Below, piece by piece: positions 298-10,267 of a stretch of 37,715 nucleotides of DNA; the stretch's first letter is position 1, and the number at the start of each line of letters is the position of its first letter. Origin of the DNA: an uncultured Saprospiraceae bacterium (GTDB lineage: Bacteria > Bacteroidota > Bacteroidia > Chitinophagales > Saprospiraceae); NCBI GenBank assembly GCA_937924145.1, contig CALDTJ010000633.1:1-37715 (forward strand), given 5' to 3'. The translations under genes and the position numbers were made by a program. The notes below the pieces were generated by a model, which worked only from the letters and a program-made list of their open reading frames with translations, searched no databases and was not told the origin of the DNA.

Positions 298-1257
298 ATG
301 CAAATAAGCAAACTACTTCTGTGTTGTTTTTTATTTTGTTCTACAACAATACTAGCACAGCAATTACCTATTTTCACTCAATATCGTCAGCATTACGGAA
401 TAATCAATCCTGCTGCTATCAATAGTGATTATTTCCTTTACGAATATAATCTTTCTTTTTCAACTTCCTATAGAAAACAATGGAACTCATTGGAAGGAGC
501 ACCTATCACTCAAAGCATACAAGTAGAATATATTCAAGAAACGGGTGGGTCTGTAGGACTTATCCTAGGAGGCTACGCACTAAATGACCAGACAGGACCG
601 ATTGGCACTACGGGTGTATATGGTAGATTAGGAGGAATTTTATCTAATGACCCTGCTTATAGTGGAATATCTTTTGGTTTGACAGCAGGGGCAGTACAAC
701 ATAGAATAGGATTACAAAATGAAATATTAAAAGATTCGGGTGATTTTTTGGCTAGTATTAACGATACTAAAATTTTTCCTGATGTGGGCGCAGGTATTTT
801 CTACTATCAACGCATCGGTGATTATGACAATTTTTATACTGGGGTTTCTATCCCACAAGTTTTTGGTTTGACGCTTAATATTAATAATGAATTTGGAGAA
901 TATCAGGTTCAGCGACTACAACACTTTTATGGCTTATTAGGGTTTTATAAATTTTTGAATGAGGAGGCTTTTTTAGAACCATCTATATGGGTCAAATATG
1001 TGGCTAATGCACCGATTGGTATTGATTTTAATTTGCGATATCAGCTTTCTAAAGCATTTTGGCTAGGAGCAGGTATTAGCACCAGTAAAAATCTTCATTT
1101 GGAAACAGGTATAGTAATTGGGGAAAATCTTAGTTGGAATAATAATGTGAAAATTGGCTACGGTTACGATAGTGGGTTCAACGAATTTGGTGCAAGATTT
1201 GGCAGTACGCATGAATTTAATGTAACGATAGTATTAGATACTTATAACCGATATTAG
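298..1257 (+). CDS. PorP/SprF family type IX secretion-associated outer membrane protein
   Basis: Signal peptide, then QQLPIFTQYRQHYGIINPAAINSDYFLYEYNLSFSTSYRKQW...GAPITQ, the typical N-terminus of PorP/SprF proteins. Confidence 0.88.
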   Translation: MQISKLLLCCFLFCSTTILAQQLPIFTQYRQHYGIINPAAINSDYFLYEYNLSFSTSYRKQWNSLEGAPITQSIQVEYIQETGGSVGLILGGYALNDQTGPIGTTGVYGRLGGILSNDPAYSGISFGLTAGAVQHRIGLQNEILKDSGDFLASINDTKIFPDVGAGIFYYQRIGDYDNFYTGVSIPQVFGLTLNINNEFGEYQVQRLQHFYGLLGFYKFLNEEAFLEPSIWVKYVANAPIGIDFNLRYQLSKAFWLGAGISTSKNLHLETGIVIGENLSWNNNVKIGYGYDSGFNEFGARFGSTHEFNVTIVLDTYNRY

Positions 1258-2927
1258 CGAATAATCGTTATATATCCTTGCTTAATTTCACCTTCTCCTA
1301 TATCTAGTTTGAGCACGTAATAATAGGTCGCTACGGGAAGTTCCTTTCCATCTATATTTGTTCCATTCCAGTCATTCCTATATGGTTTTGCTTGATATAC
1401 AACATCCCCCCAACGGTTTACAATAATCAGTTCATTGTTTAGATAATCTTGTGGGTTGTCGTTCAATTCATCAAACTCAAAAGTCTCATTAAGTCCATCG
1501 CCATTGGGAGTAATTACTTGTGGGGCTATCCCTTTTTCCTTGCATCCTTCAGTTTTATCACCAATTGTAACATCAACAGCAGTAGTATTAGACAAATCAT
1601 CAGAAATGGTGACAGTATATAATCCAGTAGCAAGACTTTCAACAAGTAGATTTTCGCCTTCTCCTATTATTGCCTCACCAATCTGAGCGTTATCTACGGA
1701 TGACCATAATAATAAGTAGGGGGGAACTCCTCCGTTTAAAGTTAACTCAAAACTACCGTCCCGCTCCTCAGGACAAGTCGTATTTACGGTTACATTGTGA
1801 GATAAGTCCTCGACTAGCGGCTCTATTCCTTTACATTTACAATCTTCTTGAATAATGTCATTCGTTGTACCAACATCTCCATCATCACAACTGACGCCTA
1901 TTTGATTTTCGCCATTGCACAAGCGAGAAAAGTTTCCTTGCCAAGAGAGTTGGACATTGCCTGAAAAATTATAACCTGTTTCCCAAGGATTTTCACTAAA
2001 ACCAAGAGCACAAAATCTTGTTATTTCTTCGGGAAAGCAACCTTCTAACTGATTATTATGCAAATATAATCTCTCTAAATTAGTCAAATTACCTAGTTGG
2101 GGAGGTATCTCTCCACTTAGTTCATTATCGTATAAATAAATATCTTGAAGATTATCTAAGTTTCCAACTTCTGCTGGGATTTCTCCTACCAATTTACTTT
2201 CCGAAAGGCGTAAAGATTTAAGGTTAGCCAAATTACCTATTTCATTTGGAATAGTGCCACTAATAGAACTTCTACTCAGCCATAGAAATAGTAAATCTAG
2301 ACTGAACAATTCCGTCGGTAAAGACCCTGTTAAGTTATTACCTTCTCCAAAAATGCGACGAAGATTGGATGCTGATGAAATCGTGGAAGGTATTGTACCA
2401 TTAATACTATTTTCACCAAATCTAAAATCTTCCAAACTAGCCATTCCTCCTATTTCTAAAGGTATTTGACCGCTTATATTATTTGCCTCCATGAATAAGG
2501 AACGTAATTTTTTTAATTGACCAATAGTATTAGGTATGCTACCCGTCAGATTTGGATTATTAGCAATAGCCAAATATTCTAACTCTACTAGCTCTCCTAT
2601 TTCATCAGGCAAAGCACCAACTAGGTTATTTCCATCGCAAGGAAAACATACACAATCCACACACAACCGTAAATCTTTTACACAGCCTTCTTCATTCAAA
2701 GTAATTCCATACCAATTATCCATAGGCTGACTCAAATCCCAAGTATTAGTCCAATTTGCCCCATCTGTAGAATTGTAAAGCGCAACCAAAGCAAGAGAAT
2801 CACGCTCTCTACAAGTTTGATATTCAACATTTTCTGTCAAATAGGGACTATTTGATTTCCCAATACCAGTTAATAAATAAAAAAGTCCAAGAAACAGAAT
2901 TGATAAAAAAGGTTGAATGCTACCCAT
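1254..2927 (-). CDS. Exported leucine-rich-repeat protein with a SprB-like repeat and a gliding-motility/CHU_C (T9SS type B) C-terminal domain
   Basis: Signal peptide; plant-type LRRs (LxxLxxLxLxxNxLxGxIPxxIGxL); SprB-like segment (GSFELTLNGGVPPYLLLWSS...GLYTVTISD); C-terminus APQVITPNGDGLNETFEF...IIVNRWGDVVYQAKPYRNDWNGTN...GYITIIR. Confidence 0.9.
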   Translation of the reverse strand: MGSIQPFLSILFLGLFYLLTGIGKSNSPYLTENVEYQTCRERDSLALVALYNSTDGANWTNTWDLSQPMDNWYGITLNEEGCVKDLRLCVDCVCFPCDGNNLVGALPDEIGELVELEYLAIANNPNLTGSIPNTIGQLKKLRSLFMEANNISGQIPLEIGGMASLEDFRFGENSINGTIPSTISSASNLRRIFGEGNNLTGSLPTELFSLDLLFLWLSRSSISGTIPNEIGNLANLKSLRLSESKLVGEIPAEVGNLDNLQDIYLYDNELSGEIPPQLGNLTNLERLYLHNNQLEGCFPEEITRFCALGFSENPWETGYNFSGNVQLSWQGNFSRLCNGENQIGVSCDDGDVGTTNDIIQEDCKCKGIEPLVEDLSHNVTVNTTCPEERDGSFELTLNGGVPPYLLLWSSVDNAQIGEAIIGEGENLLVESLATGLYTVTISDDLSNTTAVDVTIGDKTEGCKEKGIAPQVITPNGDGLNETFEFDELNDNPQDYLNNELIIVNRWGDVVYQAKPYRNDWNGTNIDGKELPVATYYYVLKLDIGEGEIKQGYITIIR

Positions 2928-2948
2928 AAAATTTGCTAACTAAAATAA

Positions 2949-5900
2949 TTAATTGGATAAAAATAAGATTGGCAGATGTTCCATTCTTTGCTGATTTGGC
3001 ATAAAAGGATGCTGACTTTTACCCTTCACTGTTTTTACCAAAAATGGAACACGTTGTTGAAGAAAGCTATATAATTCGGTCAGGGTCAATGTATGGTCAT
3101 TGTCCATATCAGGAATTAATTGCTTATCTTCTTGTGGAGTCGTCTGATTATTAAATGCCTCTAAAATTGATTTTGTAAAAGCGCCATTCTGCCAAGTAGG
3201 GTCTTCATAGGATAATTCCCCTGCACTACAAGATACAATCGTTCTCAAACCAGGTTTTGCATTCGTTAAATTGACTACTGCTGTTGCTAAATCCGCTGTA
3301 GGATTAGCAGATTTAACGCCATTTGTCATAAACGCAATACTTCCACTATGACAAGCATCAATAAAGAGTAGCTTTTTACAATTTATCCTGTTGAGCACAC
3401 TTAGAATATCCGTTTCATAATCTAACGAATATTGCCTTGGGTATAAAGACCTAAAGTCCGAGGCGTGAATTCTGAAAGAGGTAGCTTGTTGGTCTTCATA
3501 CGCTTGTCCATGAGAGGAAATGAAAAGCATCACTACATCTTTTTCTTGTATTTGATTGACCAGATACTGATTTTCTAAATCTTGAATACTGTTTCTTAAT
3601 GTTTGAATGGTAGTTTCCTCAGGCTCATTTAGCACTTTTAAAAAAACTTTATTAAATAATATATCTGCTTGATTTTTAAAAGTGTTTGCAAAGTCTATTG
3701 CATCTTTTTGAGTAAATTGTAGTCGATTATCAGGGACCCCAACTGCCAAAAGGTGTAAGTTTGGTTTGACAGGATTATGATTGATTATTAATGGAGTTGT
3801 AGCTGATTCACCAGAAGCATTTTTCACACTTACTTGTATTTTATTTTCCCCTTTCCCTAATTGAATTTGATGAATAAAAGTATAAGTAAAACGATTAGAC
3901 GAATCTTTCTTAACAGAGCTTAGTTTTACAATATCAGATTTTGCCCCATTGTCAATGGACGCTCCATTATTATAGATTGAGAAATTATTTACAGTTAGCA
4001 TTTTGTCTGAAATGGCCTTTACTTTGGTAATCACCCTTTCTTTTTCCCAATTCAGTTCGGTTGAGCCTATTTCATCAGGATTAGGAGACAACCATACTAT
4101 TTCTAGAAATTCCTTTTGCTCAGACTTGGTATTAGTTGGTTTAGATGCTTGTCGAAGTACTTCAATAGAAAGCGTTTTTTCTGTACCATATTTTCGGTCT
4201 TGTTCTAATATTTGGCAACCTATTGAAATACTATCCTCAAGAAACTCTTTTTCAGGCAAAAAAGAGTAAGTTATTTCTTTGGTTTCTCCAGATGCTATAT
4301 TTCCTAACGCTTTCATAAGGTCATTCTTGGTGGTGACTTTATAAGGAAAAGAAAACCGAGCTTTGACCACCTCTGCCATTTTATTTCCAGTATTTGTTAC
4401 AGCTAAAACTAATTTCATTTCTTGCTGCGGTATAGCCATCTCTGATGAAAAAGCGGCTTTGGATATAATCAAATTTGGTTTGGGTTTTTCTTGCGTTTGT
4501 ATTTTAAAAGAATACGATTCAGCAGCTTTATCATTCGCTCCTGCTAATTGTATTTGTAATTTATGAACACCTTGCTTTAAAGCAACACCACCTTCGATAG
4601 GAATCATGACGTTAGTAGTCGTATTAGCGGGTAGTTGGTTGACAATATATTTATTTGGAAAATCTATATTTTCCTTTTCAGCGGTCAGTAATAATTTAAT
4701 CCCATTTATTAGTTTATTAGTTTTATTAGCTATTGATACATTTAAAAAACCTTTTTCTAGCGGTGCCAATATTTTATTTTCATCAGTATCTACAAAAGTT
4801 ATCTCTCCTAGTTCTAAGTTATTAAAATCAATAGATTCAATACGCTTTTTTTCCATTTTGTAACTCAACAACCACCCTTCTTCTGTTCCTGCCGTTTTAG
4901 AATTAGTTACACCTCCCACTAATATATTTCCTTCTGGCGTAGCGGCTAAAGTCAATGCTACATCCTCTCCCTTACCTCCAAAATATTGCGTTTCCTGCCA
5001 AATCTCCTTTCCTTCTTTGTCCATTTTTCTAAGCCAACCCTTATTTCGCCTAGCACCTCTAGTATGAGAAGTACTACTACCTGTTAAAAAGTAAGTCGTA
5101 TCTGGAAGAGCAATAATGGCATTGGCTTCGTCCATACCTGCTCCACCATATTCTTTTTTCCAAAGTTCTTGTCCTTGTTGATTATAGCAAACCAAAAGCA
5201 CATTTGTTCTTTTGCGCTTATCAAAACTAATCCCTGTTGCTAGAATTTGCCCATTGGGACTAATACATAAATCCGTTCCTTTGGCCTCCGATATAGTTTT
5301 TTGCCATACCAGTTCTCCATCTTGGTTGATATGCAAAAGAAGGAGTTGATGGTCATTATTAAGTACTTCAAAGCCATTGATTATATATCCTTCTTTTGGA
5401 TGAACTTTAATAGAGGTACCTGTTGCTTTTCCTGCAAAAGGAAATGCTTTTTCCCATATCAATTGACCATCCAAGGACAATTTAACTAAAAAAAGTTCGC
5501 CATTTTTTTCTCCTGTTACTAGAATGTTACCTTGATTATCTATAACAATATCATGGAAGACATCTATCCCATTCCCTCCATAAATTTTATCCCATTCGGC
5601 TCTACCTCTATTTGAAACTTTTATTAACCAACCGTCTTTACTGTCATTTGAAACCGTGGTACCTGCTAATAGATAACCTCCGTCCGTTGATTGTATAATA
5701 GCATTTGGTACATCATCCTGTTTATTCCCCAAAAGGACACCATCTAATAAGTTTCCGTTTGTATCTGCAATTGCCCAAATAATTTCCTTATTAAGCGCTC
5801 TATTAGATTCTAATATTCCTACAAAAACTGGCTCACCTGCAGTATTGACAATCACATCATGTATCGTCTTGATGCGACTATCTCCATAGCTCTTTTCCCA

Positions 5901-5987
5901 TTGTTTGGTAAAACGTTGTTGAGCAGTAAGTCCAAAGACAACTAGAGAAAATAAAACAGTAATTAAATATTGGATGTATTTTTTCAA
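2949..5987 (-). CDS. Exported caspase-like (peptidase C14) protein with an N-terminal beta-propeller-like region and CARDB/Ig-like middle
   Basis: Signal peptide MKKYIQYLITVLFSLVVFGLTAQ; repeated GGYLLAGTTVS..DGWLIKVS..G..EWDKIYGG blades; C-terminal His motif VVMLFISSHGQAYED and Cys motif KKLLFIDACHSGS. Confidence 0.88.
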   Translation of the reverse strand: MKKYIQYLITVLFSLVVFGLTAQQRFTKQWEKSYGDSRIKTIHDVIVNTAGEPVFVGILESNRALNKEIIWAIADTNGNLLDGVLLGNKQDDVPNAIIQSTDGGYLLAGTTVSNDSKDGWLIKVSNRGRAEWDKIYGGNGIDVFHDIVIDNQGNILVTGEKNGELFLVKLSLDGQLIWEKAFPFAGKATGTSIKVHPKEGYIINGFEVLNNDHQLLLLHINQDGELVWQKTISEAKGTDLCISPNGQILATGISFDKRKRTNVLLVCYNQQGQELWKKEYGGAGMDEANAIIALPDTTYFLTGSSTSHTRGARRNKGWLRKMDKEGKEIWQETQYFGGKGEDVALTLAATPEGNILVGGVTNSKTAGTEEGWLLSYKMEKKRIESIDFNNLELGEITFVDTDENKILAPLEKGFLNVSIANKTNKLINGIKLLLTAEKENIDFPNKYIVNQLPANTTTNVMIPIEGGVALKQGVHKLQIQLAGANDKAAESYSFKIQTQEKPKPNLIISKAAFSSEMAIPQQEMKLVLAVTNTGNKMAEVVKARFSFPYKVTTKNDLMKALGNIASGETKEITYSFLPEKEFLEDSISIGCQILEQDRKYGTEKTLSIEVLRQASKPTNTKSEQKEFLEIVWLSPNPDEIGSTELNWEKERVITKVKAISDKMLTVNNFSIYNNGASIDNGAKSDIVKLSSVKKDSSNRFTYTFIHQIQLGKGENKIQVSVKNASGESATTPLIINHNPVKPNLHLLAVGVPDNRLQFTQKDAIDFANTFKNQADILFNKVFLKVLNEPEETTIQTLRNSIQDLENQYLVNQIQEKDVVMLFISSHGQAYEDQQATSFRIHASDFRSLYPRQYSLDYETDILSVLNRINCKKLLFIDACHSGSIAFMTNGVKSANPTADLATAVVNLTNAKPGLRTIVSCSAGELSYEDPTWQNGAFTKSILEAFNNQTTPQEDKQLIPDMDNDHTLTLTELYSFLQQRVPFLVKTVKGKSQHPFMPNQQRMEHLPILFLSN

Positions 5988-7480
5988 TGAACTGATATGT
6001 TTATGATTGTTGGCACAATAACACCTGAATTCAAAGGTGCTATGGCTTGAAAACCAATTTCGTTAGTATTGTATTTGATATATTTTTCGTTAATTATTAA
6101 CCCATTAAAACATTTTTCAAGTCTTTCTTTCACGCCTCCACTCTTTGTTCTAATTTGCTGAATTCTCTGAAATATATCTTTGATTGGTTGCTCACTACAT
6201 AAGATAATTAATTTTTCTAAGCCTTCTACGGTCAATTGTAAAGCACGTTCTCTATCTGGTAGCACAAATTCATCTTCTTCAGTTGACACTAATCCTGATA
6301 TGATGTTATCATTAATTAATGTTTGGTCATTTATCGGAGGATAATGCAATTCAATCTTATCTGCGGCGTCCCAGCTAAAAACATATAAGTACTGACCTCT
6401 TATGGCATTTTTAAGAACAACTTGATAAAGGTCATTTTTATTTTTATCAAGTTTATAGCTATTATGAATTGTATCAAAAGTTATTTTTTCTGTTGAAAAA
6501 ACCAGATGTCCATTTTCTAAAAATTTAGGTACTCTGAGTGAAAACAAACCTTGTAAAATAGAATGATTATCCACTCTTCCTTCTCCAAAAGTTAGTAGTT
6601 CTTTCCACGATTCTTTTAATGATGAAATGGTTTTTGATATACTTCCTTCTAATACCATTTTGTACCCATACTTTACTCGACGCCCATATACCTCATAAGG
6701 AATACTTACAAAACCTTCATCTGCCCACTCTGTACCGTAACTATTTAATAATTCAAATTCTTTGGCAATATCATCATATCCAACAACGACCATAGCATGC
6801 CCTCCAATGATTGATTCTTTATTATCTGGATTCCACAGATTTTGTCCTAAAGGTATATTCTGGAAACTATTGGTGATTTCTATGCCAATAACTACGGGGT
6901 TATTCATAGCAAGTGCCAATTTGGTTTGCTCTATTTTCTGTTCTGAACTTTCACGAAGATTAAATAATGCGACATAATCTTTAATACGTGATTCCTCTGC
7001 AGCTTGGAAAGCTTTATCTGATGGTTTTTTGTTGCATGAATTATTATCATTTGGAAAAAAGGAAACCTTACAATCACCTCTATTTTTTAATAATTCAAGA
7101 GCATCATGCAATTTAGCTCCCGTATAACAATTTTCACTTTGATTAATTTGATTAAATATGAAGGAAGAGGAATATGCCTCTCTAGTAATCTGTTGAGTGA
7201 CGGTTAACTCTTTTTTTATGGCATGCAATATACTCAAACAACCATAACCTGTTGCCCAAGCTACACAAGAACCTAAATTAGCTTGGTCTTTAGGTTTTGG
7301 ACAGTATTTTCGCAGACTAACCGAAATAGGAATTTCTTTAAATTTCTCTCCACTATAAGGGGGTAATTGTGGAATAGTATCATAAGCTGCATCATCCCAA
7401 ATTAATCCAGTTGCGTTTTGCCCTAGCATTTGACTAGCACAGCAAAAACTAAGCAACAGTATAAAAAGTAATTGTTTCAT
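5984..7480 (-). CDS. Exported papain-like C1 family cysteine protease with a C-terminal DUF4384-like region
   Basis: Signal peptide; DQANLGSCVAWATGYG (Cys), GGHAMVVVGYDD (His) and LLNSYGTEWADEGF (Asn) motifs; overlaps the caspase ORF by 4 bp. Confidence 0.88.
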   Translation of the reverse strand: MKQLLFILLLSFCCASQMLGQNATGLIWDDAAYDTIPQLPPYSGEKFKEIPISVSLRKYCPKPKDQANLGSCVAWATGYGCLSILHAIKKELTVTQQITREAYSSSFIFNQINQSENCYTGAKLHDALELLKNRGDCKVSFFPNDNNSCNKKPSDKAFQAAEESRIKDYVALFNLRESSEQKIEQTKLALAMNNPVVIGIEITNSFQNIPLGQNLWNPDNKESIIGGHAMVVVGYDDIAKEFELLNSYGTEWADEGFVSIPYEVYGRRVKYGYKMVLEGSISKTISSLKESWKELLTFGEGRVDNHSILQGLFSLRVPKFLENGHLVFSTEKITFDTIHNSYKLDKNKNDLYQVVLKNAIRGQYLYVFSWDAADKIELHYPPINDQTLINDNIISGLVSTEEDEFVLPDRERALQLTVEGLEKLIILCSEQPIKDIFQRIQQIRTKSGGVKERLEKCFNGLIINEKYIKYNTNEIGFQAIAPLNSGVIVPTIINISVH

Positions 7481-7497
7481 TAATTGGGCTATCGTAG

Positions 7498-8280
7498 TTA
7501 ATTAGATTCGATAATTTTTTCTAGTGCTTTATTCGAATTGGCTTTAAGCTGTTGTTTTTCCTCATTGATTTGAATTGAGTAGTAATTATCATCGACACTT
7601 AAGTAAAATCCATCTGAATTCATTCCTTTTATTTCCCAAACTTGAAATTGCTCGTTTCCTGATAATTCAATAGTACCGTCGAAAATCAACAATTCTTTTC
7701 CAGAAAAAGAATAAGTATTCGAATAGTCTTTTTCCCTATAAATTTTCAAGGCTATTTCTTCTTTCTCAGTTATATTGTTAGGAGCATTGTTCGTTCCTAT
7801 CACAATCCTCGAATGTTTGATACTTTTAGTCGCTTTTAAATTTCTAGGTGTCGCTAATAAATCTTCGTCTATTCTATCTGTATTATTATTATTATCTGCT
7901 ACTGCTCGCTCTTTAGTCAAATAATCCAATGAAAAAAAGCCAATTGTAATTAAGAGCAGAAAAGATGCTGCAAGAGCTAACCACTTTCTATATCCAGATG
8001 GTTTCATTTCAACTATTTTACCTGACGTTGCCGAATCTTCAGATGCAGATACATCTAATGCCAAACGCTCATGTATCCCGTTCAATTTTTTTTTAAGCGC
8101 AGCCTCTGCAGATTGCTCAATACCGACCTTTATTAATCGTTGCTCCCCTACTAACTTTTGTAGCTCCTTATTCTTTGCTAACTGCACCTTAAAATCATCA
8201 TGCTCTTCCCTACTAAGCTCTCCGTTGAGATACTGGTCTATTAATTCTAACATTTCGGTTGATAATTCCATATTTGTCAC
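7498..8280 (-). CDS. Anti-sigma factor-like single-pass membrane protein
   Basis: N-terminal acidic/helical region (ELIDQYLNGELSREEHDDFKVQLAKNKELQ), one TM (WLALAASFLLLITIGFFSLDYL), periplasmic tail; 3 bp downstream of the ECF sigma gene. Confidence 0.75.
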   Translation of the reverse strand: MTNMELSTEMLELIDQYLNGELSREEHDDFKVQLAKNKELQKLVGEQRLIKVGIEQSAEAALKKKLNGIHERLALDVSASEDSATSGKIVEMKPSGYRKWLALAASFLLLITIGFFSLDYLTKERAVADNNNNTDRIDEDLLATPRNLKATKSIKHSRIVIGTNNAPNNITEKEEIALKIYREKDYSNTYSFSGKELLIFDGTIELSGNEQFQVWEIKGMNSDGFYLSVDDNYYSIQINEEKQQLKANSNKALEKIIESN

Positions 8281-8283
8281 TTT

Positions 8284-8841
8284 TTAAAGATTCAACATTT
8301 TTCTTAAACGAGTCATGCACTTATATTTCTGTTGTTTAGCTGTTTTGGAACTATTATAACTCAATTGTTTTGCTATTTCTTCCATGGACAGCTTGTTGAA
8401 ATAAAATAAGTACAGCAAAGACTGGCAAGGGTCTCCTATTTTGTCAACCGCTAATTTAACCTCATTTATCTTATCCTCAATGATTTTACCTTCACTAATA
8501 CTAAACTCTTCGGAAAGTAGGCTTTCGTAATTAGATATATCCACATTGGCGATACGCTTTTTCTTATTTAGTCTTTTATACCAAAGATTTTTCGCTACAC
8601 CAAAAATATAAGTGCTAAGTGCGCTAGTTAATGTAAAATTGCCCCCTAAAGTTTTTTTGTAAAGCACAATAAGTGCATCTTGATATATATCTTTTGCATC
8701 TGCCTCTTTTCCACTATTATTTAATACATAATTTTTTACAGCTTGATAATTACCTTTCTTGTAAAGCAGCACCCATGCCTCTTCCTCTTTTTGCCTCAAT
8801 CGCTCTAGTAAAATATTATCTGATTGTATTTGATTACTCAT
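8284..8841 (-). CDS. ECF-type RNA polymerase sigma factor (sigma-70 family)
   Basis: Region 2-like (EADAKDIYQDALIVLYKKTLGGNFTLTSALSTYIFGVAKNLWYKRLNKKKR) and region 4-like (LSMEEIAKQLSYNSSKTAKQQKYKCMTRLRKML) segments. Confidence 0.88.
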   Translation of the reverse strand: MSNQIQSDNILLERLRQKEEEAWVLLYKKGNYQAVKNYVLNNSGKEADAKDIYQDALIVLYKKTLGGNFTLTSALSTYIFGVAKNLWYKRLNKKKRIANVDISNYESLLSEEFSISEGKIIEDKINEVKLAVDKIGDPCQSLLYLFYFNKLSMEEIAKQLSYNSSKTAKQQKYKCMTRLRKMLNL

Positions 8842-8994
8842 ATATCCTCTATTTTGTAAAAAGTCACCTCTTCTTCTTTCAATTCATTTTATGCCCTCAG
8901 ACAAAGGTACGTACAAAGGCTCGCTTTTTAAATAAATAGCTAGCTAGTAGGTAATACATCAAAATTTTTATTTTTAAAAAAAGTGAAATGATAG

Positions 8995-9025
8995 AGGTGA
9001 CTTATTTAAAATAGAAAGATAAAGG
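8995..9025 (+). promoter_or_regulatory. Candidate ECF-sigma promoter AGGTGACTTATT-N11-GATAAAGG
   Basis: Same boxes and spacing as at 9621-9651; related copy on the minus strand overlapping the sigma gene start. Confidence 0.55.
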
Positions 9026-9061: not shown

Positions 9062-9442
9062 ATGAAAAAGTTATTATTTCTTACCATCACTTTATTAAGT
9101 CTTTTCACTTCTACCATTGATGCACAAACTGTTTACGTTACAAAGACAGGAACAAAATACCACGAAGACTACTGCTCCTATCTGGAATATAGTAAATATT
9201 TCATCAGTCTCTCGAAAGCATTAGAATATGGTTATACTAGCTGTTCTAGATGTAAACCTCCTAAAAAAACCAAAAGCGCAGTAAACGTCGTAAACACTCA
9301 GCCGACCTACCTCTACCAAAACACATCTCAACAACCAACATCTCGAACCACTTACTCAGTTAGATGTAATGGTATTACTCAAAAAGGTTATCAATGTAAG
9401 CGAAAAACGAAAAATGCCAATGGTTACTGCTGGCAACATTGA
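9062..9442 (+). CDS. Small exported Cys-rich protein with a DUF5763-like C-terminal motif
   Basis: Signal peptide; HEDYCSYLEYSKYFISLSKALEYGYTSCSRCKPP; C-terminal RCNGITQKGYQCKRKTKNANGYCWQH. Confidence 0.7.
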   Translation: MKKLLFLTITLLSLFTSTIDAQTVYVTKTGTKYHEDYCSYLEYSKYFISLSKALEYGYTSCSRCKPPKKTKSAVNVVNTQPTYLYQNTSQQPTSRTTYSVRCNGITQKGYQCKRKTKNANGYCWQH

Positions 9443-9620: not shown

Positions 9621-9651
9621 AGGTGACTTATTAAACTTCTAGGGATAAAGG
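9621..9651 (+). promoter_or_regulatory. Candidate ECF-sigma promoter AGGTGACTTATT-N11-GATAAAGG
   Basis: Identical box sequences and spacing to 8995-9025; 71 nt from box start to the ATG at 9692. Confidence 0.55.
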
Positions 9652-9691: not shown

Positions 9692-10267
9692 ATGAAAAAG
9701 TTAGCGTTTGCTATTTTTGTTTTAACAGCAACAATTACAGTAGAATCTTTTGGTCAGTTTTCTCTCGGTTCAGGAGTATCTTTACCATTAGGTGAATACG
9801 CCGATGATGACGGTGGTTCAGCAGGCATAGGTTTTATAGTAAAAGGTGGTTGGGAAAAGTTATTAAATGAGAACATAGGAATTACCACAGGTATTGTGAT
9901 TGGCAGTAACCCACTAAAAGAGGATGTCTCAGGAATAGATGCAGGTTCTTGGACTTATTTTCTATTAGAAATAGGGGTATTGATACAAGCCACAGAAACA
10001 CTTAAAATACGAGGAATGCTTGTTCGAGCTGGTTCATCTAGCCCTGAAATTAAACAAGGTTCACAAGTAGTTTTAACATCAGCAAGTGCTGGTTCTTTTG
10101 GTTTTGATATAGGCACGTCTTACGAAGTAGGTCAATTCTATATTGGCGCCAACTACACTTCCTTCAATCCAGAATTTAAGTTTAATTTAAATAGTCTTGG
10201 GGCTGGAATAGTTGAAGAAAAGCAATCAATCGGCATGATAACTTTGACTGGAGGATATATATTTTAA
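9692..10267 (+). CDS. Outer-membrane beta-barrel-like protein
   Basis: Signal peptide; Gly/aromatic alternating beta strands (GSGVSLPLGEYADDDGGSAGIGFIVKGGWEKLL...GMITLTGGYIF). Confidence 0.65.
   Translation: MKKLAFAIFVLTATITVESFGQFSLGSGVSLPLGEYADDDGGSAGIGFIVKGGWEKLLNENIGITTGIVIGSNPLKEDVSGIDAGSWTYFLLEIGVLIQATETLKIRGMLVRAGSSSPEIKQGSQVVLTSASAGSFGFDIGTSYEVGQFYIGANYTSFNPEFKFNLNSLGAGIVEEKQSIGMITLTGGYIF

What the first reader, a model, noticed from the sequence alone, without database searches (positions are those of the whole stretch)
1254..8841. Candidate new system: ECF sigma / anti-sigma / papain / caspase / LRR-CHU_C operon
Five minus-strand genes are packed with gaps of 3, 17, -4 and 21 bp: ECF sigma, one-TM anti-sigma-like protein, exported C1 protease, exported C14 caspase-like protein, and an LRR+SprB-repeat+CHU_C surface protein. 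Both proteases retain their catalytic motifs (C1: GSC, GGHA, NSYG; C14: SSHG, DACHSG). All three downstream products have signal peptides, so this does not resemble an intracellular suicide module. One inferred model is an envelope circuit: an LRR surface sensor or adhesin, a two-step cysteine-protease cascade, and anti-sigma release that induces the same operon. Sigma/anti-sigma pairs and T9SS export are established. The coupling of a papain, a caspase and an LRR protein in one operon is, to my knowledge, not a named system.
Basis: partly seen in the sequence, partly recalled or inferred. Interest (0 to 1): 0.75.

Follow-up and report, generated by a model that had tools for sequence, protein, structure and literature searches.

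The report
Sigma-factor-controlled exported double-protease surface operon
In an uncultured Saprospiraceae bacterium, a small transcription switch (a sigma factor with its membrane-bound inhibitor) appears to turn on two exported protein-cutting enzymes, one papain-like and one caspase-like, together with a surface protein, as part of a conserved and apparently undescribed gene set whose own promoter sequence could be recognised.

Summary
In detail: five tight minus-strand genes (1254-8841) encode an ECF sigma factor, a one-TM anti-sigma-like protein, exported papain-like C1 and propeller-CARDB-caspase-like C14 peptidases, and an LRR-SprB-CHU_C surface protein. It is not unique. C14 follows C1 in 47 of 66 related loci, and in Saprospiraceae the set is typically C1 > C14 > CHU_C > PorP/SprF. 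The window has the sixth member, PorP/SprF, convergent at 298-1257.

The sigma pair is optional overall but present in all 8 members of the window's own C1 clade. New here: a sharp promoter, GTRAC-N16-NATA, upstream of the sigma gene and neighbouring exported-protein genes (21 sites in nine sigma loci; 0 in 835 kb of sigma-less loci). The host genome has six exact matches to the window form, three of them here. A second motif in two congeners lies before sigma, C1 and C14 genes, so sigma control of the operon is well supported by sequence.

Most likely this is an autoregulated ECF envelope regulon that makes a T9SS type-B surface protein plus two periplasmic cysteine peptidases of unknown substrate. 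It combines known parts in a combination I found no report of.

The parts
8284..8841 (-). ECF sigma factor
   Evidence: TIGR02937 71.3 bits over cut-off 42.9, Sigma70_r2 over cut-off
7498..8280 (-). Anti-sigma-like protein: N-terminal cytoplasmic part, one TM helix (~99-117), ~140-aa ectodomain; in most relatives the ectodomain is TPR-like, here it is different
   Evidence: position after sigma, topology, NF052375 weak
5984..7480 (-). Sec-exported papain-like C1 peptidase with C-terminal DUF4384-like domain
   Evidence: Pfam PF00112; invariant Q66 C72 H228 N246; AF2 pLDDT 87.8, best PDB match xylellain 3ois TM 0.75
2949..5987 (-). Sec-exported beta-propeller + CARDB/Ig-like + caspase-like C14 peptidase (TTG start)
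   Evidence: Pfam PF00656; H826/C879 and D877 invariant in 27 sequences; AF2 pLDDT 82.8
1254..2927 (-). LRR + SprB-like repeat + CHU_C (T9SS type B sorting domain) surface protein
   Evidence: PF13585 83 bits, TIGR04131 51.9 bits, LRR families
298..1257 (+). PorP/SprF-family T9SS outer-membrane shuttle/anchor, convergent and overlapping the CHU_C gene by 4 bp; in relatives it lies co-directionally after the CHU_C or C14 gene
   Evidence: TIGR03519 144.6 bits over cut-off 90.55; synteny
8843..8868 (-). Candidate cognate ECF promoter of the sigma operon: GGTGACTT-N14-GATA, 2 nt before the sigma ATG
8996..9021 (+). Same promoter motif, 41 bp before ORF 9062-9442
9062..9442 (+). 126-aa exported Cys-rich protein, predicted regulon member
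   Evidence: signal peptide by sequence; motif upstream
9622..9647 (+). Same promoter motif, 45 bp before ORF 9692-10267
9692..10267 (+). 191-aa exported protein, probably an outer-membrane beta-barrel (by eye), predicted regulon member

Best explanation
This is an autoregulated ECF envelope regulon of Saprospiraceae. The one-TM anti-sigma protein holds the sigma factor at the inner membrane; an unknown envelope cue acting on its ectodomain releases it; the sigma then transcribes its own operon and a few nearby genes from a dedicated promoter (GTRAC-N16-NATA). The products are envelope proteins: a CHU_C (type B) surface protein that needs a PorP/SprF partner to be secreted and anchored, and two Sec-exported cysteine peptidases (papain-like C1, propeller-caspase-like C14) that lack a T9SS sorting domain and so probably act in the periplasm as a pair, most plausibly on envelope or T9SS cargo proteins. 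Supported by sequence: gene content, catalytic motifs, conserved linkage, promoter and its targets. Inferred from family knowledge: anti-sigma function, type B secretion. Guess: signal, protease substrates, order of action.
For: Conserved linkage: C14 lies in the same-strand run within three genes after C1 in 47 of 66 loci with room; of 45 with at least 9 kb downstream, 17 also have PorP/SprF and 13 CHU_C. C1 tree: the window's 8-member clade (SH-aLRT 96) is sigma-linked in all members. Promoter: 21 upstream-of-gene GTRAC-N16-NATA sites in nine loci of that clade (131 kb) vs 0 in 55 sigma-less loci (835 kb) and 0 in 18 other sigma loci; spacings 13-15, 17 and 19 give 0 and spacing 18 gives 5. 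Motif in 6 of 9 sigma upstream regions vs 0.04 expected. Own genome: 6 exact window-type sites in 7.0 Mb, 3 here. G026: 6 of 9 genome-wide sites within 27 kb of its locus. In G006 and G004 a different motif, GGGTAC-N14-AAACAC, lies upstream of sigma and the C1 operon in both, of C14 in G006, and of other exported-protein genes: 13 of 16 distinct targets have a signal-peptide-like start, two others are the sigma genes. CHU_C/PorP pairing is established for F. johnsoniae type B substrates (PMC12618676, PMC9143113).
Against: No expression data. In two congeners (G001, G008) the C14-LRR genes lie elsewhere and genome-wide the motif occurs only at the sigma-C1 locus, so sigma control of C14 and LRR is not universal. 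Many C1-C14-CHU_C-PorP loci have no sigma nearby. The window's PorP gene has no motif. The sigma site sits 2 nt before the ATG, implying a leaderless or later-starting message (7 nt in G004/G006). The motif was found by looking at these upstream regions; the genome-wide, spacing and second-genome counts are the checks. The anti-sigma is identified by position and topology, not by a family model over cut-off.
Confidence: 0.65

Rival explanations
1. One reading: LRR surface sensor, C1 activates C14 (or the reverse), and one of them cleaves the anti-sigma as site-1 protease, releasing sigma.
For: Conserved C1-C14 pair; exported proteases and a one-TM anti-sigma with a periplasmic part; site-1 cleavage of anti-sigma factors is an established mechanism elsewhere (PMC8844934, listed).
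Against: C1-C14-CHU_C-PorP loci without sigma are common; Flavobacteriaceae keep C1-C14 alone, in one of 11 with a different sigma gene nearby; no conserved processing site in the C14 loop; the LRR part is variable; in G006 C1 and C14 lie on separate motif-bearing units.
Confidence: 0.1
2. The two peptidases are dedicated processing enzymes for the type B (CHU_C) surface protein and its PorP/SprF anchor, as PorU is for type A cargo; the sigma merely co-expresses them.
For: C1 > C14 > CHU_C > PorP order recurs with and without sigma; proteases lack a sorting domain so should stay in the periplasm where cargo passes; C14 and the PorU sortase both belong to peptidase clan CD (family knowledge).
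Against: Flavobacteriaceae C1-C14 pairs have no CHU_C/PorP neighbours; no cleavage site known; F. johnsoniae type B cargo is secreted with its shuttle without any such protease being reported in the passages read.
Confidence: 0.2
3. An intracellular conflict or cell-death module of the EACC/caspase type.
For: Caspase plus ECF sigma plus TPR genes are described for EACC2 systems (PMC8195603); TPR-CHAT genes recur near these loci.
Against: All effectors have signal peptides; EACC1-caspase model 33 vs cut-off 140; no PADLOC hit.
Confidence: 0.03
4. Chance neighbours: protease-adhesin operon next to an unrelated sigma pair.
For: Sigma is absent from many loci.
Against: Sigma-linked in 8 of 8 of the window's clade; motif evidence in several genomes.
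Confidence: 0.02

Closest known systems
Sigma-70/metacaspase operons of Myxococcus, Anaeromyxobacter, Haliangium, Sorangium, Ralstonia, Fibrobacter (Asplund-Samuelsson 2012, PMC3501461)
   Same: sigma factor gene in an operon with a C14 gene
   Different: that report names no papain, CHU_C or PorP/SprF partner in the passages read; no promoter
Type B CTD adhesin + PorP/SprF shuttle pairs (SprB/SprF and others; PMC9143113, PMC12618676)
   Same: CHU_C surface protein adjacent to a PorP/SprF gene
   Different: there no linked C1/C14 proteases or ECF pair reported in the passages read
ECF sigma / one-TM anti-sigma pairs (general)
   Same: gene order, topology, autoregulated promoter logic
   Different: protease-rich exported regulon; TPR-like ectodomains in relatives, signal unknown
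EACC2-caspase systems with ECF sigma and TPR genes (PMC8195603)
   Same: caspase and ECF sigma neighbours
   Different: no EACC domain match over cut-off; products exported
SigP/PorX control of T9SS genes in P. gingivalis (Kadowaki 2016, title seen)
   Same: ECF sigma tied to T9SS
   Different: there driven by a two-component system acting on T9SS component genes

Membership tests
ECF sigma factor | sigma-70 region 2 and 4 profile | tested here: met
   TIGR02937 71.3 vs 42.9; Sigma70_r2 28.5 vs 24; region 4 only below cut-off
ECF sigma factor | directs its own promoter | tested here: inconclusive
   conserved motif upstream by sequence only
Membrane anti-sigma factor | gene right after sigma, one TM helix | tested here: met
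Membrane anti-sigma factor | anti-sigma domain profile | tested here: inconclusive
   NF052375 21.2 vs cut-off 100; zf-HC2 and DUF3379 weak
Membrane anti-sigma factor | binds and inhibits sigma | not testable with these tools
   needs two-hybrid or pull-down
Papain (C1) peptidase | profile and Gln-Cys-His-Asn residues | tested here: met
   37.6 vs 20.7; all four invariant in 28 sequences; fold matches xylellain
Caspase-like (C14) peptidase | profile and His-Cys dyad | tested here: met
   42.8 vs 21.4; H826 and C879 invariant
T9SS type B substrate | CHU_C / type B sorting domain | tested here: met
   PF13585 83 vs 27; TIGR04131 51.9 vs 35
Type B substrate / PorP-SprF pair | linked PorP/SprF gene | tested here: met
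   TIGR03519 144.6 vs 90.55 at 298-1257; co-directional in relatives
Type B substrate / PorP-SprF pair | physical pairing and secretion | not testable with these tools
   needs co-expression assay
EACC1-associated caspase system | EACC1-caspase profile over cut-off | tested here: not met
   33 vs 140
Known anti-phage defence system | PADLOC profile match | tested here: not met
   no match for any of the five proteins
Sigma-metacaspase operon (PMC3501461) | sigma-70 and C14 in one operon | tested here: met
   window and L136, L138, L163, L171-L182

The most novel reading that the evidence does not exclude
A new envelope-remodelling system in which an ECF sigma with its own locus-centred promoter set makes a type B surface protein, its shuttle and a dedicated papain/caspase-like pair that processes that protein or its anchor in the periplasm, i.e. 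a processing pathway for type B cargo parallel to PorU for type A.
Probability: 0.18. Interest if true: 0.8.

Novelty: new variant of a known kind. Interest (0 to 1): 0.58.

Why it matters
Bacterial caspase homologues are usually discussed as cell-death or intracellular defence proteins. Here a conserved, exported caspase-like/papain pair is tied by synteny and by a recognisable promoter to an ECF sigma factor and to T9SS surface proteins. That gives a concrete, testable envelope role for part of the large metacaspase set of Saprospiraceae (28 in Haliscomenobacter, PMC3501461) and a predicted promoter for an uncharacterised ECF group.

Tried and rejected
Defence or suicide module: rejected (signal peptides; PADLOC empty; EACC1 below cut-off). 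Metacaspase-type auto-processing site: the loop after the catalytic Cys has no conserved basic residue. Promoter patterns that forced the AAAATAGA core to a fixed register found no match or one site, because the core is shifted by one base between sites. The generic sigma-70 promoter and terminator scan was no better than shuffles. A common dyad motif for the Haliscomenobacter-type and other sigma groups: not found with the simple search, except L154. Full-length C14 model against PDB: matches dominated by propellers and Ig-like proteins, uninformative for the protease domain; phmmer of the C14 domain against PDB found nothing. The first A1 profile was too diverse for the contig scan.
Full report
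What is there. The five ORFs, gaps and motifs are as reported. Sigma: TIGR02937 over cut-off. Anti-sigma-like: one TM helix near residue 99, no model over cut-off. C1: Pfam Peptidase_C1 with the papain tetrad; signal peptide; weak DUF4384 at the C-terminus. C14: signal peptide, propeller-like repeats, CARDB, C14. LRR-CHU_C: type B sorting domain. A PorP/SprF gene (298-1257, +) abuts it convergently. The rest of the window is mostly housekeeping. A same-genus contig of the genome search has the same length and match position as a named uncultured Saprospiraceae contig, so the host is very probably Saprospiraceae.

Is the arrangement conserved? I searched 101 genomes for C1, fetched neighbourhoods, then collected 80 named loci. 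In Saprospiraceae the order C1 > propeller-C14 > CHU_C > PorP recurs in many loci (L142, L145, L147, L149, L153, L155, L158-L160, and others), and sigma > anti-sigma precede C1 in L134-L136, L138, L152, L163, L190 and, with two intervening genes, L171, L175-L177, L182. L136, L138, L152 and L163 have sigma > anti-sigma > C1 > C14 > PorP. Counting by script: 73 DUF4384-type C1 genes; of 66 with at least 1.5 kb downstream, 47 have C14 within three same-strand genes (expected 0.3-1.4% per locus); of 57 with 3 kb upstream, 12 have sigma in the same upstream run and 20 have one within six genes (expected about 2.6% for the former). The loci are related, so the binomial figures overstate independence; on the C1 tree the label changes at least 5 times for sigma-in-run and 12 for C14. 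The window's clade of eight (SH-aLRT 96; quick tree, long branches) is sigma-linked throughout. Eleven Flavobacteriaceae loci (Lutibacter, Polaribacter and others) keep only C1 > C14, embedded among housekeeping genes, one of them with a sigma gene after C14. So the oldest part appears to be the C1-C14 pair; CHU_C/PorP and the sigma pair are lineage-specific additions.

The surface protein is the variable part: LRR in the window, L116 and L117/L118; SprB-repeat, Ig or PKD proteins in L042, L119, L136, L138. In L136, L138 and L040 a CHU_C gene lies in an operon divergent from sigma. PorP/SprF partners for type B substrates are established experimentally elsewhere (PMC9143113, PMC12618676).

Promoter. 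Upstream of sigma genes of the window's clade I noticed GTAAC with ATA at a fixed spacing. The window has three GGTGACTT-N14-GATA sites: before the sigma gene (2 nt), ORF 9062 (41 nt) and ORF 9692 (45 nt). The whole 7.0-Mb genome has six exact matches, control pattern none; the other three matches looked unremarkable. Across nine clade loci (131 kb), GTRAC-N16-NATA occurs upstream of genes 21 times; spacings 13-15, 17 and 19 give zero, spacing 18 gives five; 55 sigma-less loci (835 kb) and 18 other sigma loci give zero. In G026, nine genome-wide sites, six within 27 kb around the locus. In L154 (G006) a different motif, GGGTAC-N14-AAACAC, precedes sigma, the C1 operon, C14 and a 450-aa exported protein; genome-wide G006 and G004 have 9 and 8 sites (controls 1 and 0), and 13 of 16 distinct downstream ORFs start like signal peptides, two others being the sigma genes; a 418/408-aa pair of similar proteins carries the site in both. 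My signal-peptide rule is crude (50% background), so this is supporting only. In G001 and G008 the motif occurs only at the sigma-C1 locus and not at their C14-LRR loci.

Enzymes. C1 catalytic Gln/Cys/His/Asn are invariant in 28 relatives; AF2 (pLDDT 87.8, pTM 0.84) matches xylellain and papain-fold proteases. C14 His826/Cys879 and Asp877 are invariant in 27; the AF2 model gives a propeller, Ig-like domains and C14, with a disordered loop after the Cys. The conserved acid at Asp877 resembles metacaspases, suggesting Arg/Lys preference (family knowledge, untested). Neither protease matched a T9SS sorting domain in the family scans, so a periplasmic location is inferred. That loop has no conserved basic site.

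Interpretation. Sigma control of the operon is well supported at sequence level. What the peptidases cut, and what the anti-sigma senses, are not shown. I favour an envelope/surface-remodelling regulon; the cascade model has no direct support.

Prior art. Sigma-metacaspase operons (PMC3501461), ECF sigma/TPR/caspase EACC2 systems (PMC8195603) and type B/PorP pairs are known. My searches of the open-access library for the combination found nothing, which does not exclude papers outside it.

Noticed in passing
L070 9082-12159 (host genome C654): Second sigma > TPR anti-sigma > exported MORN-C14 locus in the host genome, without C1.
   Followed up: partly
L154 / G006:C613 and G004:C343: A second ECF motif, GGGTAC-N14-AAACAC, with about 8-9 genome-wide sites before mostly exported-protein genes, including repeated 230-aa paralogues and a 408/418-aa pair present in both genomes.
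   Followed up: partly
L176 8425-9999; L154 2276-3463; L046 1607-2710: A recurrent family of exported proteins of about 200-395 aa sits between the anti-sigma and C1 in several lineages.
   Followed up: no
L136 5796-8396 and 15521-18252; L040; L163; L138: Some loci have glycerate kinase, an anion symporter, an ABC exporter and a DUF1611-like gene close by, several directly behind the same promoter motif.
   Followed up: partly
L115, L117, L123, L126, L055, L171, L175-L177: Large exported TPR-CHAT proteins recur next to these protease loci, sometimes divergent from C14 or sigma.
   Followed up: partly
L191-L208 (Flavobacteriaceae): C1 > C14 pair conserved among housekeeping genes; no CHU_C or PorP neighbours.
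   Followed up: partly
L128 1472-16684: Four tandem C14 genes of about 1200-1375 aa each.
   Followed up: no
window 8841-8868: Promoter motif ends 2 nt before the sigma ATG (7 nt in G004/G006), suggesting leaderless or very short-leader sigma messages.
   Followed up: no
L194 (record titled Sulfurovum sp. bin170): C1 followed by a C14-like gene in a record labelled outside Bacteroidota; transfer or mis-binning.
   Followed up: no
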